Source: Defluviitalea saccharophila (lineage in GTDB: Bacteria > Bacillota > Clostridia > Lachnospirales > Defluviitaleaceae). Taken from it: a stretch of DNA of 64,000 nucleotides. The stretch's first letter is position 1. Every line of letters begins with the position of its first letter. The stretch is from NCBI RefSeq assembly GCF_038396635.1, contig NZ_CP121687.1:2718592-2782591 (forward strand). Reading direction: 5' to 3'. The position numbers and the translations under genes were made by a program. Positions 8,430 to 22,818 of this stretch are shown piece after piece. The notes under the pieces are model-generated. The model was not told the origin of the DNA. It was given only the letters and a program-made list of their open reading frames with translations, and did not search any database.

Positions 8430-10496
8430 TTATATCTTAAATTTCTTTACGCCTATTTCTAATCGATCGATGCTTTCTTTTGATTCTAAAACTTCTTTCA
8501 TAATTCCAGTAGATTTAGTGGATGCTTCAGAAACTCGGTCTGCAATATCCGTGGTTCCTGCCGCACCTTCATTGGCAGCTGTGGCTACAGCGTCGATGGT
8601 TGTTAAAATTTCTTGAATTGAAATAGAAAGTTTTTCACAAGTAGAATGAAATACAGATATAAGATTATCAATAAATTTAGCATCTTCGTTATATTTTTCT
8701 GATACATCTAACATCACTTGATAATCATTATATACATCTGTGGATACAAAGCTTAGTAAATCATTAGAACTGCTGGAAAGACGATCTACTGCAGAGGTTA
8801 CGCTTGTTGTTACGTCCTGTATTTTAAGTACTGTATTTTTGGATTGTTCAGCAAGCTTTCTTATTTCATCTGCAACAACAGAAAAACCTTTACCAGCTTC
8901 ACCAGCCCTTGCCGCTTCAATCGCAGCATTTAATGCAAGTAAATTGGTTTGTTCTGTGATTTGCATAATGGATTCGGTTAAAATATTGATTTGCTCAACG
9001 ACTCTTGAATTTTCAATTGCTTCTTCAAGCTTATTTTTTGTAACAATAAATATATCAGATGCTTTTCGTCTGGCATCGGATACATTTTCTCTTGTAGACG
9101 TTGCGCGTTGACTGATTTCTTTGGCAGAAATTGCACCTTTTTCTGTTTCTTCAACGATGGATTCTATCATTCTTTTGATTTCGTTGGAAATTGCCATCAT
9201 CTGTTGGGAGGACGCAGCGGTTTCTTCCATACTTGCCGCTAATTCTTCTGTGGTCGCAGATATTTCTTGCAGATCATGATTTAATATATCCACATTATCC
9301 ACAATATGAAGGGACTTGGTTTCAATAGCTTCGGACTCATTCTGAATACTTTTTACTAATTGTACTAAAGAATTTTTCATATTACTAATACCATTGGTAA
9401 TGGTTCCTATTTCATCTTTTCTTACCAGGTATTTTGAGTCAAGATCTTGAGAAAAATCCCCACTGGAAATGATTTTTAAATGTTCAGAAGCTCGAATAAT
9501 GGGTTTGGTGATTTTCTTGGTGCTAAAATGGATTAACACTACAGTTAAAGCGAGCATTAATATAGAAACAACAAGAACCGTATAAGAGATATTTCTGGCA
9601 CCCGCTGTTAATTCTTTTTCTGGTACAAATGATGCCAAAATCCAGTCCGTACCATCTACTTTACGAGGATTTACAAAATATTCTTCACCATTAATAGTAG
9701 TAAAAAATGGAGCTAAATTTTCTGATAGAATATTTTCCAATCCAGCGATATTTACTTCTTCAATCATTTTGAAGTTATTCTCCGGATTGTTTCCATCTGC
9801 CACAATCATTCCAGTATTGTGTACCATCATAAAAAAGGCATTTTTTTCTGTTCTAATTTGGCTGAGCATATCACTAATGACTGATTGCTCAACATCAATT
9901 CCGATTGTACCCATTAGCTTTCCATTTTTATTAGTAAATGTGCGTAAATTACTTATAACCATTGCACCACTTGTAGCCTGATATGGAGCTGTTCTCATAA
10001 TGGCTCCGTTTCCGCTTAAACCTATTTGATACCATCCTCTAGTTGTCGGATCATATTCTGCCGGTATGCTTGTTTCAGGCCAATTCAGATAACCACCATC
10101 TTCCGTAGCCAAATACACATATAATGTACCGGGATGGGCCTGGGCATATTGATCAAATACAAAATAAAGCTCTTGTTCAAGGCCGCCATTTTTAGATGGG
10201 GTCATATTTGTTTCAGTACTTGTATTCTTATAAGAAGTAATGGTGCCATCATTAACTTGGAGTGTTAATGGATGAGTTGCCAGCATATTGATGTTTTTAT
10301 CTATTTGATCATAAAAAATCTTAATAGAATGTTCTGCCAGTTTCATCTGTTCATTAGAACTATCTAAGTAATCTTTCCTGGTTTGGGTATTTACTTGATA
10401 ACTAATGACAGCACCTACTGATGCCAGTGCTAATAAAATAATTACAATCGCAATGGCTAATATTTGTGTTTGTATACTTTTAAAGCGATTTATCAT
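8430..10496 (-). CDS. Methyl-accepting chemotaxis protein (dCache-HAMP-MCP)
   Basis: 688 residues. A membrane segment at about 12-32, a large extracytoplasmic double-Cache sensor ([18 protein letters not shown]), a second membrane segment near 300-320, HAMP, and a cytoplasmic signalling domain with the conserved hairpin tip [19 protein letters not shown]. Ligand unknown; dCache domains often bind amino acids or small carboxylates. Start ATG 10496 follows GGGAGG. It lies 39 bases after the secreted GDSL hydrolase and reads from the same c-di-GMP riboswitch leader, tying a chemoreceptor to the second messenger. A strong bidirectional terminator follows. Confidence 0.92.
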
Positions 10497-10535: not shown

Positions 10536-11501
10536 TTATTTTTTGAAATTGAATGTTTTTACAGCATTATACATTTCTTCCCCGAAGATATTATGAGCAA
10601 CACGGCTAAAATGCCATTCATCCCAGAAAAAGTATTGATCTGGATTTTCACGAGCTGGTTTAACTTCCGGATAAGTGCTTTGACATTCCTGGCTGAGTTC
10701 AACCAATCCATATTTTTCAGGATTTTTCACGATTTTATTACTTACCTTGGTATGATCAAAAAGTAAAATTGATACATCCAAATCTTTTTCTTGTTTTTTC
10801 AAAGTTTTAGGAAGTTCCTTGTTAAAATGCTCTGTAAAGGCTTTAGCTTCCGCAGTTCTTCCGGTAGTAATCTCATAAGGTACTAATGATAGATCACTGC
10901 TATTGACTACAAAGAACTTTTTAGCACCTAGATCGGCTAAGTTCTTAACAGCAGTATTTATGTTGACAACAGCTTGATCTGCCACGCCTTTAATAGTTCC
11001 TTCCAGTTCATAATCCATAAATAAATAGTAGTCGTTTGCAGAAGCGAAAATAAAATACAAAGCATTAGGATCAGCTTTTTGTCCATTTAAACTTTTTTCA
11101 AAGGCTTGGATTTGTCCAAGTAAACCTGTAGGTCCTAAATGATCCATCCATGCTGAGTAGTTTCCTTCTCCACTGGTTGCGCCGCCGGTAGCATAATTGA
11201 ATAAATGTACTCCGAGTTTTTCTGCTAATATTTCAACAGATGTAGGGCCATTGGAATATCTACTTTCCCAATATAATTCATCTGAAGGCTTTATGTATGC
11301 ACCTTCAGGAGTATTTGCATCATTTACAATTGCGGTAGTGATTCTTTTTGCCTCCCCACTATCTGAATGACTATCTCCAAAAGCAATCACTTGGCTAATA
11401 AAATTTTTGGATGGTTTGTTATTTGCTGCAAATACGAATTGACTGGTAGCTAAGATACAAATTAAAACGACTGAAATGATGTTTTTTAAATGTTTTTTCA
11501 T
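10536..11501 (-). CDS. Secreted GDSL/SGNH-family lipase/esterase
   Basis: 321 residues. An N-terminal signal peptide (hydrophobic stretch to about residue 25, VFAANN cleavage region) precedes an SGNH hydrolase domain. Block I is AFGDSHSDSG with nucleophile Ser44; a block II-like Gly lies in NYATGGAT, the Asn block in FASANDYY, and the terminal Asp/His pair in WDEWHFS. The enzyme should act outside the membrane on lipid, ester or acyl-polysaccharide substrates. The start at 11501 (MKKHLKN) has GAGGAG nine bases upstream; ATG 11510 is directly adjacent to that site and less likely. First gene of the c-di-GMP-controlled operon. Confidence 0.85.
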   Translation of the reverse strand: MKKHLKNIISVVLICILATSQFVFAANNKPSKNFISQVIAFGDSHSDSGEAKRITTAIVNDANTPEGAYIKPSDELYWESRYSNGPTSVEILAEKLGVHLFNYATGGATSGEGNYSAWMDHLGPTGLLGQIQAFEKSLNGQKADPNALYFIFASANDYYLFMDYELEGTIKGVADQAVVNINTAVKNLADLGAKKFFVVNSSDLSLVPYEITTGRTAEAKAFTEHFNKELPKTLKKQEKDLDVSILLFDHTKVSNKIVKNPEKYGLVELSQECQSTYPEVKPARENPDQYFFWDEWHFSRVAHNIFGEEMYNAVKTFNFKK

Positions 11502-11620
11502 AATATCCATCTCCTCATTAGTAATTAATATTGAGTTCCTTAAAAAATAGTGATTCTGATTGAAATTTTTAGAATATAATTTTTTTGAGCCCTCCTTTGT
11601 GTCACTATGTTGTATTAATA

Positions 11621-11663
11621 AAAAAAGTACGGCCCCAATAAACTATCGGCGCCGTACTTTTTT
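11621..11663 (-). terminator. Intrinsic terminator of the c-di-GMP leader
   Basis: A 13-bp stem (AAAAAAGTACGGC / GCCGTACTTTTTT) with a U-run in the minus direction. It sits between the aptamer and the GDSL gene and is the natural expression platform for riboswitch control. Confidence 0.8.
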
Positions 11664-11711
11664 ATTTCTACATAAAACGCATTAAACCAATTTATGAATT
11701 GATTTAAGTGA

Positions 11712-11770
11712 GTCAAAGATTTCACAAGTAACTATGAATAGGATTCATAGTTACTTGTGAAATCTTTGAC
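11712..11770 (-). repeat. Perfect 28-bp inverted repeat in the leader
   Basis: The arms 11712-11739 and 11743-11770 are exactly complementary over 28 bp with a 3-base loop. The hairpin lies directly 3' of the aptamer on the minus strand and before the terminator. No U-run follows, so it is not a simple terminator. It could be an RNase III-type processing site, an insulating hairpin or part of the switch. Confidence 0.85.
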
Positions 11771-11781
11771 CCATACATGTT

Positions 11782-11863
11782 CGGCAACCTGGCGATCATA
11801 GGATTTAAATCCGTTAGACCCATAGCTTTGTGTCCTTATCTTTCGATAAGTTTACCTTTATCG
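11782..11863 (-). ncRNA. Cyclic-di-GMP-I (GEMM) riboswitch aptamer
   Basis: Reading the minus strand from 11863, the conserved GEMM-I elements occur in order: AAAGGTAAAC, the CGAAAG tetraloop region, GGACACAAAGC, GGGTCTAA and finally ATCGCCAGGTTGCCG. This matches the c-di-GMP-I consensus with its GNAAAG-type loop and receptor (CACAAAGC where CGCAAAGC is commonest). The aptamer is followed by a perfect hairpin and a terminator, then the GDSL hydrolase and chemoreceptor genes. c-di-GMP should switch termination of this operon; whether it turns expression on or off is not determined. Confidence 0.9.
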
Positions 11864-12093
11864 TTTATTATTTTATATGAATATAAAATTTACCATAAGT
11901 ATAAATAATTTTTCGCCATTTTTCCATACTTTATTTGAAAAAAATATAAAAAATTACTCTTTTCTGAGTTTAGCGGAAGTATTATGGATAATATATAGGT
12001 ATTTTTCTCCATGAATTTTCCTTTTTTTAGCTGGTAATTGTAGCTAATTATTTAACAATTACAAAATTTGATGTTGTTTTGTGTATTTAATTC

Positions 12094-12122
12094 TTGACAA
12101 GATGAGCGTTATAAGATAGAAT
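12094..12122 (+). promoter_or_regulatory. Sigma-A-type promoter of the T-box leader
   Basis: TTGACA at 12094-12099, a 17-base spacer and TAGAAT at 12117-12122 place transcription start about 20 bases before the T-box stem I. Confidence 0.85.
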
Positions 12123-12142
12123 TATTGAAAATTAAATTTATT

Positions 12143-12405
12143 AAATGCAATGATCAAGAAGTAGTAGCAGTAATGGCAGTCCTTCAGAGAGCTTTCGGTT
12201 GGTGCGAGAAAGCAGGATATAGGTACTGTGAATTCGTCTTGGGAGCTATACACTCAACGGCGTATGCCAAGTAGGCTGTATCGGAATCCATCCGTTAAAG
12301 TGGAAAGCAATGTTAGTTGCTTACTGAGGTTGTGAAAACAACGAAGCAAGGTGGTACCGCGAATAACTAATTCGCCCCTGTAATACAGGAGGCGATTTTT
12401 TATTT
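12143..12405 (+). ncRNA. T-box leader (tRNA-sensing riboswitch) with terminator
   Basis: Stem I carries AGTAG-type and AGAGAGC...GGTTGGTG apical signatures (12186-12204). The antiterminator bears the T-box AAGGTGGTACCGCG at 12348-12361, whose bulge pairs with the tRNA acceptor end. A GC stem with U-run (12372-12401) is the terminator. The specifier on the 3' side of stem I lies in GAATTCGTCTTGGGAGC (12230-12246). TTC (Phe, 12233-12235, followed by a purine) and GTC (Val, 12236-12238) are the candidates. Uncharged cognate tRNA should permit readthrough into the downstream amino-acid-type ABC transporter. Confidence 0.93.
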
Positions 12406-20565: not shown

Positions 20566-22818
20566 TTGAAGGTTAAGAATAGGATTAAACAACTGGATAT
20601 TAAAATTTTTATAATATCCTTTGCCATTATCACAGTCATCTTCTTTTGTATTAGCAGTATTACATTCAGCAGCATAAGAAACTACTATTTTAATCATATG
20701 AGAGAGGATTCGATTAATTTCGCAAAGAGTTATTCCTATAGCTTATCCAAAGCGGTAGAGGCAAAAGATGTCATTAATGAATTATTAGAAGAAAAAATTC
20801 TTGTGGCAAGCAGAACTACAGCTTTATATGACGGACAGTACAACAATCAATTTTTAAGAGAACTGGCAGATATTTTGGAAATAGATGAAATCGATTATTA
20901 TAATTCCAAAGGGGAAATAGTTCATTCTAACATAGATAATTATGTTGGCTGGAAGGCATATGAAGGCCATCCGGTTCATAATTTTATGATTAGTGACAAG
21001 ATAAGCCACATTGACAATATAAGGCAAGATTCGATCTCAGGGAAATACTTTAAATATGGCTATTTTAGAGTTTCAGAAGGGGGATTCCTTCAGATTGGCG
21101 TTATAGCAGAAAAAATTTATAATTTCCTTGACAGTTTTGAAATGCAGAAATTACTTGATGAAATGCAAAATGTTAAAGATGTAACAAAGGCTTATTTTAT
21201 TGATAATGATTTTAACATCACTAAAAGCAGGAATACGCACTTTGTTGAAGAAGAAATCATTACCCCAGAAATTAAAAATGCAATTCTTAGTAATAAAGAA
21301 TATAGCTTTGTTAGTACCCATGATGGAGAAAAAGAATATCAGGTTTTTGTTCCCGTATATTTAGAGGATATCAAAATAGGAACATTAGCTATTGGGCAGT
21401 CCTTAAAAGAAACAGAAGATATGGTAAGATATTTAACTGCTGTGAGTTTAGTAGCTGTACTCATCATATATGCTTTATTGATTTATATCATGATTTCCAC
21501 ATATCAAAAAAACCTAAAATTAAGTCAATTGGCATATTATGATGCTCTAACCGGATTGCCGAACAAGCATCGCCTTAAAGAGTTTTTGACCAAAGAGCTG
21601 GAAAAGAAGGAAAGAACCAATAAAGCCCTCCTGTTGATTAACTGTAAGAATTTTAGACTTATTAACTTGACTTATGGATATGAGTATGGGGATGAACTTC
21701 TAAAAGAACTGAGCAAACGTATTCAGGATTTAGGAGATGGAAATAACATACTTTTTAGATTTTCCGCCGATCGCTTTGTTTTGTATATAAAAAATTATAG
21801 CGACCAGGAAGAATTGGTGTCTATAGTCAATAAAATTACTAAAGCATTTAAGACACCTTTTAAAGTCAAGGATGGAGAACAGAATATCAGCGTCCAAATT
21901 GGTATTGTTGAGATTCATAACAAATACGATCATTTTGACAGAATACTAAAGGACGCTTCGATTTCATTAAGTCATATTAAAGACAATCATTCTGCAGATT
22001 ATGTATTTTTTAACGAAGTGATGGAAAATAAGCTGCAGAGAGAAGATTTAATTGAAAAAGAACTTAGGGCAGCCATTACCGAAAACGATACCAGTAAACT
22101 GTATTTAGAATATCAGCCTCAAGTGGATTTAAAAACAAATAAGATTATTGGTTTTGAAGCCCTTGCCCGTATGAGGACTGAAAGTCTTGGTTTCATATCT
22201 CCCATGGAGTTTATTGATGTGGCAGAAAGAACGCAGCTCATTGTTCCACTAGGCAATTTTATCCTGAAGCAAGCCAGCGAATTTATCCGGGATTTAATAG
22301 ATAAAGGTCACAAGGATATAAAAGTAGCAGTCAATATTTCAGGAATTCAACTCCTTAGATATGATTTTACGGATACGGTTATGGAGATTGTTAAGGATAC
22401 GGGCATTGAACCGTCAAACCTTGAATTAGAAATAACAGAGTCTGTACTTTTGGATAATTATAATATTATTAATGAAAAACTCAAGGATCTAAGGAGTCAT
22501 AAAATAGAAATAGCCCTAGATGATTTTGGAACAGGATATTCGTCTTTTGCTAGACTACTTGAATTAAATATTGATACTTTAAAAATTGATAGATATTTTA
22601 TCAACAAAATTTCTGTTAAGGACAGCAGCGAAATCATCACAGGAGACATTATTTCTATGGCTCATAAACTGGGACTTAAAGTAGTGGCAGAGGGCGTTGA
22701 GGTACCAGAGCAGAAGAATTATCTCCTGGGACATCAGTGCGATACTATGCAAGGCTATTTGTTTAGCAAGCCTATTTCAAAAGAGAGCGCTCTTCAGATG
22801 TTAACTTGCAATGGGTAA
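20566..22818 (+). CDS. c-di-GMP phosphodiesterase: sensor, degenerate GGDEF, EAL
   Basis: About 750 residues from TTG 20566, eight bases after AAGGAGG; the upstream GTG 20527 lacks such a site. Two membrane segments flank an extracytoplasmic sensor region of about 250 residues. The GGDEF domain begins DALTGLPNKHRL, but its active-site motif reads FSADRF instead of GGDEF, so cyclase activity is unlikely. The EAL domain is intact: EALAR, VNISGIQL (Asn), LELEITES (Glu), LDDFGTGYSS (Asp-Asp), LKIDRYF (Lys) and VAEGVE (Glu). It should hydrolyse c-di-GMP, perhaps with the degenerate domain as a GTP sensor. The riboswitch at 11782-11863 is a plausible downstream target of the same pool. Confidence 0.9.
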   Translation: MKVKNRIKQLDIKIFIISFAIITVIFFCISSITFSSIRNYYFNHMREDSINFAKSYSYSLSKAVEAKDVINELLEEKILVASRTTALYDGQYNNQFLRELADILEIDEIDYYNSKGEIVHSNIDNYVGWKAYEGHPVHNFMISDKISHIDNIRQDSISGKYFKYGYFRVSEGGFLQIGVIAEKIYNFLDSFEMQKLLDEMQNVKDVTKAYFIDNDFNITKSRNTHFVEEEIITPEIKNAILSNKEYSFVSTHDGEKEYQVFVPVYLEDIKIGTLAIGQSLKETEDMVRYLTAVSLVAVLIIYALLIYIMISTYQKNLKLSQLAYYDALTGLPNKHRLKEFLTKELEKKERTNKALLLINCKNFRLINLTYGYEYGDELLKELSKRIQDLGDGNNILFRFSADRFVLYIKNYSDQEELVSIVNKITKAFKTPFKVKDGEQNISVQIGIVEIHNKYDHFDRILKDASISLSHIKDNHSADYVFFNEVMENKLQREDLIEKELRAAITENDTSKLYLEYQPQVDLKTNKIIGFEALARMRTESLGFISPMEFIDVAERTQLIVPLGNFILKQASEFIRDLIDKGHKDIKVAVNISGIQLLRYDFTDTVMEIVKDTGIEPSNLELEITESVLLDNYNIINEKLKDLRSHKIEIALDDFGTGYSSFARLLELNIDTLKIDRYFINKISVKDSSEIITGDIISMAHKLGLKVVAEGVEVPEQKNYLLGHQCDTMQGYLFSKPISKESALQMLTCNG

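What the first reader, a model, noticed from the sequence alone, without database searches (positions are those of the whole stretch)
11712..11770. Perfect 28-bp hairpin inserted between aptamer and terminator
A flawless 28-bp inverted repeat with a 3-base loop lies directly after the aptamer and well before the real terminator, with no U-run. Natural leaders rarely hold such a long perfect stem. It may be an RNase III site, an RNA insulator or a recently acquired element.
Basis: partly seen in the sequence, partly recalled or inferred. Interest (0 to 1): 0.6.

Follow-up and report, generated by a model that had tools for sequence, protein, structure and literature searches.

The report
Long RNA stem inside a riboswitch
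A gene switch that senses the signalling molecule c-di-GMP carries an unusually long, perfectly paired RNA stem between its sensor and its stop signal; it most likely acts as a self-contained spacer, and it looks like an extreme version of a known arrangement.

Summary
The hairpin is real: 28 perfect DNA pairs around a 3-base loop at 11712-11770, 31 uninterrupted RNA pairs (one G-U) on the minus strand. It lies 6 nt after a c-di-GMP-I (GEMM-I) aptamer and about 45 nt before an intrinsic terminator, in the leader of a GDSL-lipase/MCP operon. It is the longest perfect short-loop hairpin in 464 kb sampled from this genome, and the longest helix within 200 nt of the aptamer among 98 c-di-GMP-I leaders (31 pairs; next 16). 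It occurs at one place in the genome and is identical in a second genome of the species. A same-genus species has a shorter, imperfect hairpin at the same place with shared arm cores. So it is no assembly artefact, dispersed repeat or recent foreign insert.

Unforced folding of both species' leaders, cut before the terminator's 3' arm, pairs the aptamer's 3' strand with the terminator's 5' arm: an OFF-switch scheme like that of Clostridioides difficile Cd1. The hairpin sits inside that antiterminator loop. Best reading: a self-sequestering spacer that lengthens the ligand-binding window, made perfect by template switching. An RNase III site or a neutral by-product remain possible. Computed switching does not need the stem, so its own function is inference.

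The parts
11898..11926 (-). candidate promoter (TGGAAA-17-TATACT) upstream of the aptamer; the TATACT is kept in the sister species
   Evidence: consensus scan, 9 of 12 (7 sites in the region against a shuffled mean of 4.6, sd 2.3, so weak); TATACT present in L016
11780..11866 (-). c-di-GMP-I (GEMM-I) riboswitch aptamer
   Evidence: Rfam RF01051, 89.8 bits, full length
11782..11789 (-). aptamer 3' strand GGUUGCCG, proposed antiterminator strand A
   Evidence: unforced folds of truncated leaders, window and L016
11709..11773 (-). hairpin A: 31 uninterrupted RNA pairs (28 perfect DNA pairs at 11712-11770), loop CCU, -44.6 kcal/mol
11682..11707 (-). hairpin B: AU-rich stem of 11 pairs in the whole-leader fold, one of them U-G
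   Evidence: region 11665-11708 folds at z -2.8
11648..11654 (-). terminator 5' arm CGGCGCC, proposed antiterminator strand T; CGGCACC in the sister
11621..11663 (-). intrinsic terminator with T-run
   Evidence: inverted repeat I2, folds, own terminator finder; kept in L016; not listed by the simple scan
10536..11510 (-). regulated gene: GDSL lipase/acylhydrolase (324 aa)
   Evidence: PF00657, 1.1e-20
8430..10496 (-). second gene of the likely operon: dCache methyl-accepting chemotaxis protein (688 aa)
   Evidence: PF00015, PF02743; 39 nt after the lipase gene

Best explanation
The leader is a c-di-GMP-I riboswitch that works like Cd1, a transcriptional OFF-switch, for a GDSL-lipase/MCP operon. 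Without ligand, the aptamer's 3' strand (GGUUGCCG) pairs with the terminator's 5' arm (CGGCGCC), the terminator is delayed or prevented, and the operon is read. With c-di-GMP bound, that strand is held in the aptamer and the terminator forms. The 31-pair hairpin A and the smaller hairpin B lie between these two strands, inside the antiterminator loop. The most likely role of hairpin A is a passive, self-sequestering spacer: it lengthens the time in which the nascent aptamer can bind ligand before the terminator arm appears, without offering single-stranded RNA that could mispair. Its length and perfection probably arose by template switching at an older, imperfect hairpin. Shown by computation: the anatomy, the alternative pairing in two species, the homologous hairpin in the sister. 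Inferred: OFF polarity, the spacer/timer role, the template-switch origin.
For: Aptamer 89.8 bits; 16 GGDEF hits in the genome, so c-di-GMP signalling is plausible. Unforced folds of the window and L016 leaders, cut before the terminator 3' arm, pair the terminator arm with the aptamer (mean 0.60-0.74; 0.0 once the 3' arm is out), and the best structures use GGU.GCCG, later its GCCG core. The pair U-G of the window is U-A in the sister. Pairing of 4 or more positions between aptamer 3' end and terminator arm is computed for 43 of 88 surveyed leaders (window and sister included), against 20-25 of 88 in four controls with arms swapped between leaders. PMC9262584 (passages, introduction part 1 and section 15): Cd1 is an OFF-switch, its antiterminator uses the aptamer's strand A, and a longer platform is said to give more time for binding. 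The sister's hairpin pairs 15 of 18 positions in register against 5-8 when slid. Shuffled stems lower the antiterminator pairing to 0.62 from 0.74. The outer 5' arm matches the sister at 9 of 13 bases, the outer 3' arm at 2 of 13, as if the 3' arm had been copied from the 5' arm; template switching is documented to make perfect RNA stems (PMC8794818, abstract and opening).
Against: Deleting hairpin A does not change the computed antiterminator pairing (0.75 against 0.74); kinetics were not simulated. Full-length folds favour the terminator state: forced antiterminator -84.3 against -101.1 kcal/mol in the window, -56.2 against -65.4 in the sister, so the antiterminator can only be transient. 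Swapped-arm controls reach 4 pairs in 20-25 of 88, so such a pairing in one leader is not rare by chance, and the two species' leaders are not independent. Before the terminator arm appears, the model gives the native aptamer 3'-strand pairs 0.07 in the wild type and 0.30 with A deleted (no ligand or tertiary contacts), which runs against A helping the aptamer. PMC9262584 also doubts that a larger time frame changes final occupancy. The 118-nt interval is not itself extreme: 14 of 88 are longer, and four leaders have a more stable interposed region over 212-229 nt. Covariation with two sequences is not above slid controls (3 two-sided changes in register, 1-4 slid). Identity between the two genomes of the species says nothing about selection, because the 975-bp lipase gene also has no difference. 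A spacer does not require 31 perfect pairs.
Confidence: 0.42

Rival explanations
1. RNase III site. The 31-pair duplex is cut after transcription, separating the terminated aptamer piece, or giving the read-through mRNA a new 5' end that changes its stability.
For: An uninterrupted stem of 31 pairs is long enough for RNase III (length rule recalled); one RNase III hit in the genome. A passage of PMC3649979 reports fragments of c-di-GMP-I riboswitch transcripts that may be cleavage products (it names RNases Y, P, J1 and J2, not III).
Against: The sister species keeps the riboswitch but only a short, interrupted stem, so the role would be species-specific. No RNA data.
Confidence: 0.2
2. Neutral by-product. 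A short ancestral hairpin was extended to perfection by template switching and is tolerated because it is self-contained; it has no function of its own.
For: Deletion does not change the computed switch; the sister's interposed region is much weaker (-19.8 kcal/mol, z -2.8, against -52.7, z -12.7); arm asymmetry 9/13 against 2/13; template switching known to create stems (PMC8794818).
Against: A hairpin is kept at the same place in both species with shared arm cores; no stem over 16 pairs within 200 nt in the other 97 leaders.
Confidence: 0.25
3. DNA element: the 59-bp palindrome binds a dimeric regulator between promoter and gene, as Zur binds the terminator DNA of riboswitch Bc1, or part of it serves as a promoter downstream of the aptamer.
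For: Shared arm cores TTTCACA/TGTGAAA in two species; precedent for Zur in PMC11218506 (abstract); a promoter-like site TTGACT-16-TAAATT starts in the 3' arm (11716-11689, minus strand, 9 of 12).
Against: The shared half-sites are 29 bases apart in the window and 27 in the sister (counted), and the inner sequence is not kept; no other copy in the genome. Seven promoter-like sites were found where shuffles give 4.6, sd 2.3, and the TTGACT is absent from the sister.
Confidence: 0.06
4. Inserted mobile or repeat element, or an assembly artefact.
For: Long perfect stem; one exact 22-nt match of one arm in a viral contig (L135).
Against: One place in the genome; among 295 genomes of the order only the two of this species match; no match in plasmids or phages. 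The viral match lies inside a long open frame, on one arm only, without the hairpin, and reads as chance. A second genome has the same sequence; the sister has a homologous hairpin.
Confidence: 0.03

Closest known systems
Cd1 c-di-GMP-I riboswitch of Clostridioides difficile (upstream of flagellar genes)
   Same: Same aptamer family; terminator; antiterminator made with the aptamer's strand A; an extra stem HP1 forms in the full-length RNA besides P2, P3 and the terminator stem (PMC9262584).
   Different: Here 118 nt lie between aptamer and terminator, with a 31-pair stem and a second hairpin; Cd1 can bind ligand from nucleotide 87 to 147. The text I saw does not say where HP1 lies; that it sits between aptamer and terminator is my inference. 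The two platforms' sequences were not compared.
Bc1 c-di-GMP-I riboswitch of Bacillus thuringiensis (mcpE leader)
   Same: c-di-GMP-I aptamer with a long platform holding two hairpins (PMC11218506, abstract and section 6 part 1).
   Different: Both Bc1 hairpins are terminators with U-runs; here hairpin A has none.
c-di-GMP-I leaders of the same order (98 surveyed)
   Same: 17 of 98, the window included, have a hairpin of 10 or more pairs (G-U allowed) without a U-run within 200 nt of the aptamer.
   Different: Longest other uninterrupted helix there is 16 pairs; median aptamer-terminator interval 27 nt of 88 called, though 14 of 88 exceed 118 nt.
RNA stems made by replication template switching
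   Same: Perfect arms; the 3' arm looks like a copy of the 5' arm relative to the sister.
   Different: The ancestral sequence was not reconstructed; only one sister with the riboswitch was found.

Membership tests
c-di-GMP-I (GEMM-I) riboswitch, RF01051 | aptamer sequence and structure above the gathering score | tested here: met
   89.8 bits against 35, positions 1-87 of 87
c-di-GMP-I (GEMM-I) riboswitch, RF01051 | binds c-di-GMP and changes gene expression | not testable with these tools
   needs binding and transcription assays
Cd1-type transcriptional OFF platform | intrinsic terminator after the aptamer | tested here: met
   the simple scan did not list it
Cd1-type transcriptional OFF platform | aptamer 3' strand can pair with the terminator 5' arm | tested here: met
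   computed only; window and sister; swapped-arm controls reach 4 pairs in 20-25 of 88
Cd1-type transcriptional OFF platform | ligand promotes termination | not testable with these tools
   polarity inferred from the pairing
intrinsic terminator (hairpin A itself) | U-run directly after the stem | tested here: not met
   CUUAAAUC follows
RNase III substrate | duplex of about two helical turns or more (recalled) | tested here: met
   31 pairs
RNase III substrate | cut in cells or by the enzyme | not testable with these tools
   gene hit present, no RNA data
dispersed repeat or MITE | several copies in the genome or relatives | tested here: not met
   1 place in the genome; 2 of 295 genomes, both of this species
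template-switch-made stem | one arm newly made as reverse complement of the other relative to an outgroup | tested here: inconclusive
   outer arms 9/13 and 2/13 against one sister

The most novel reading that the evidence does not exclude
The stem is a tunable timer: in a kinetically controlled riboswitch, the length of a self-folding duplex between the antiterminator strands sets how long the nascent aptamer may sample c-di-GMP, and thus the ligand dose for shut-off, and template switching lets lineages change it in one step (a weak short stem in one species, 31 pairs in the other).
Probability: 0.2. Interest if true: 0.55.

Novelty: new variant of a known kind. Interest (0 to 1): 0.35.

Why it matters
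If the stem is a timer, one mutation event could retune a riboswitch's sensitivity without touching its sensor, and two sister species with short and long stems give a ready natural comparison. If it is an RNase III site, a c-di-GMP riboswitch would be coupled to RNA processing. If neutral, it is a clean example of how replication can make long RNA stems in leaders.

Tried and rejected
Terminator reading of hairpin A: rejected, no U-run. Dispersed repeat: rejected; the genome does have another repeated hairpin, 19 places, with unrelated letters. Phage or plasmid origin: no match in either collection at E 0.01. One 22-nt exact match in viral contigs lies in an open frame on one arm only and was set aside as chance; its expectation was not computed. 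Selection test between the two genomes of the species: no difference in the leader, but none in the 975-bp lipase gene either, so no inference. Staple idea (stem needed to bring the strands together): not supported, deletion gives 0.75 against 0.74. Covariation: not above slid controls with two sequences. Leader peptide: an 18-codon ATG frame runs from just after the aptamer into the hairpin's 3' arm (read by eye); in the sister the same ATG meets a stop after two codons, so it was dropped. Tepidibacter L015 and Peptostreptococcaceae L017 have the lipase relative but no c-di-GMP-I match on the fetched DNA, so they cannot tell the ancestral state.

Survey limits: 98 loci, namely the 4 of the window's genome, 7 of its family and 87 among the best-scoring. 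Of the rows down to the last one taken, four neighbours in tandem pairs were left out; lower-scoring rows were not taken. The second copy of this leader (L018) was left out as a duplicate, while L008/L023 (same species) and L009/L024 (same genus, alike) were both counted. Strand was set from the listings and all 98 aptamers carry the expected conserved words. Terminator calls are loose: 10 of 98 none, and some called hairpins are second aptamers. The first attempt at the hairpin script stopped with a file error after the window part and was redone for the loci.

Full report
Observation. On the + strand, 11712-11770 is a perfect inverted repeat of 28 pairs with a 3-base loop; one mismatch further out, the arms run to 11709 and 11773. 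On the minus strand the mismatch is a G-U pair, so the RNA has 31 uninterrupted pairs, -44.6 kcal/mol. At the window's composition a 28-pair perfect hairpin is expected about 4e-9 times in 3.01 Mb. In 464 kb examined (window plus 20 stretches of 20 kb, 15% of the genome) there are 20 perfect hairpins of 15 or more pairs with loops up to 12; this is the longest, followed by 22, 22, 21 and 21.

Context. The minus strand reads: candidate promoter, c-di-GMP-I aptamer (11866-11780, 89.8 bits), hairpin A (11773-11709), hairpin B (11707-11682), intrinsic terminator (11663-11621), GDSL lipase (11510-10536), dCache MCP (10496-8430). The simple terminator scan lists no terminator in 11400-12200; the terminator rests on its inverted repeat, the folds, my own finder and its conservation in the sister. 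The genome has four c-di-GMP-I aptamers, 16 GGDEF hits and one RNase III hit. Named records of the same species and genus are labelled Candidatus Epulonipiscium sp., a genus that NCBI places in Lachnospirales.

Not a repeat, insert or artefact. The hairpin sequence is found at one place in the genome, both strands, the other matches being 14-27 bases at E 1.4 or more, and in 2 of 295 genomes of the order, both of this species. Plasmid and phage collections give no match at E 0.01. A second genome of the species (L014, 97.1% over 3,649 bases) has no difference in the leader. This does not show selection: the 975-bp lipase gene has none either, and 98 of the 107 differences lie in the MCP gene.

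Sister species. L016 (same genus; lipase 85% identical in the best segment) has the aptamer (81.2 bits), the terminator and, between them, a shorter and interrupted hairpin. It shares AAAG[AG]TTTCACA on the 5' side and TGTGAAATC on the 3' side with hairpin A. With arms anchored there, 15 of 18 sister positions pair, against 5-8 of 18 when slid by 1-4 either way. Ten of the 18 pairs are unchanged, two changed on one side, three on both, three do not pair; slid controls give 1-4 two-sided changes, so covariation is not shown. Its interposed region folds at z -2.8 against -12.7 in the window. The outer 5' arm of the window resembles the sister (9 of 13), the outer 3' arm does not (2 of 13). I read this as the 3' arm having been copied from the 5' arm, the mark of template switching (PMC8794818, abstract and opening seen); one sister cannot prove it.

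Switch mechanism. Leaders of both species, folded without constraint and cut before the terminator's 3' arm, pair the terminator arm with the aptamer (mean over the arm 0.60-0.74). When the arm has just emerged the best structure is GGU.GCCG with CGGC[G/A]CC; in longer cuts the GCCG/CGGC core stays while the GGU part is replaced. Once the 3' arm is present the pairing is 0.0. The U-G pair of the window is U-A in the sister. At full length the terminator state is favoured by 16.8 and 9.2 kcal/mol over the forced antiterminator, so the choice would have to be made during transcription. In the survey, 43 of 88 leaders with a terminator call show 4 or more such pairs (recomputed), against 25, 24, 20 and 20 of 88 when terminator arms are swapped between leaders. 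The feature is thus enriched, but a single case is not strong. The scheme is that of Cd1: PMC9262584 (passages, introduction part 1, section 15) describes Cd1 as an OFF-switch whose antiterminator engages strand A of the aptamer, with an HP1 stem formed in the full-length RNA; where HP1 lies is not said in what I read. [quoted passage not shown] difficile. OFF polarity here is inferred from the pairing.

What the stem does. Hairpins A and B lie inside the antiterminator loop. Deleting A leaves the computed antiterminator pairing unchanged (0.75 against 0.74); deleting B gives 0.75, both 0.72. Shuffling A 200 times lowers it to 0.62 on average (sd 0.21); shuffling A and B together gives 0.60; making the arms unable to pair gives 0.60. 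So the model gives no need for a staple but a modest gain from self-sequestration. Against this, before the terminator arm is made the model gives the native aptamer 3'-strand pairs 0.07 in the wild type, 0.30 without A and 0.34 without B; ligand and tertiary contacts are not modelled. The end of the aptamer and the end of the terminator's pairing arm are 132 nt apart. At the 20 nt/s used in PMC9262584 that is about 6.6 s (my arithmetic), against 3.0 s given there for Cd1. That paper says a longer platform may raise sensitivity but also doubts that the larger time frame changes final occupancy.

How unusual. Of 98 c-di-GMP-I leaders of the order, 17 (the window included) have a hairpin of 10 or more pairs without a U-run within 200 nt of the aptamer; the longest uninterrupted helix other than this one is 16 pairs. 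Counting perfect pairs within 300 nt, the next is 23, at 211-259 nt. The median aptamer-terminator interval is 27 nt; 14 of 88 exceed the window's 118 nt, and four have a more stable interposed region, over 212-229 nt. So an interposed hairpin or a long interval is ordinary; an uninterrupted stem of 31 pairs is not.

Verdict. A c-di-GMP-I riboswitch with a Cd1-like platform and an extreme interposed stem; a new variant of a known kind. Searches of the paper library for riboswitches with long or intervening hairpins or RNase III sites (15, 6, 12 and 10 papers listed of 21, 6, 56 and 55) did not bring up a matching description in the titles and abstract openings listed; only the papers named above were opened.

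Noticed in passing
12141-12382 (+): T-box leader (121.6 bits) before a divergent ABC substrate-binding/permease operon; also present in L014 and L016.
   Followed up: partly
own genome, 19 places, e.g. G000:C1:2618941-2618966: A repeated hairpin ATAGGAAATT-N6-AATTTCCTAT occurs 19 times in the genome, 0 in the reversed control; two copies reach 22 perfect pairs. Unrelated to hairpin A.
   Followed up: partly
8890-9531: 97 of the 107 differences between this genome and the same-species genome L014 crowd into this part of the MCP gene, while the lipase gene has none: recombination between MCP paralogues or a mis-assembled contig.
   Followed up: no
21532-21990 (+): A GGDEF domain (112.5 bits) is encoded about 10 kb from the riboswitch (converted to window coordinates).
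   Followed up: no
L006 1501-1587 and 3' of it: Another c-di-GMP-I aptamer of this genome is followed by a 15-pair hairpin with only a weak U-run, before a gene resembling a response regulator (guess from its letters, not searched).
   Followed up: no
11689-11716 (-): Promoter-like site TTGACT-16-TAAATT (9 of 12) starting in the hairpin's 3' arm, downstream of the aptamer; not above the shuffled count and not in the sister.
   Followed up: partly
L135 6766-6787: Exact 22-nt match to one arm inside a long open frame of a viral contig; no hairpin there.
   Followed up: yes
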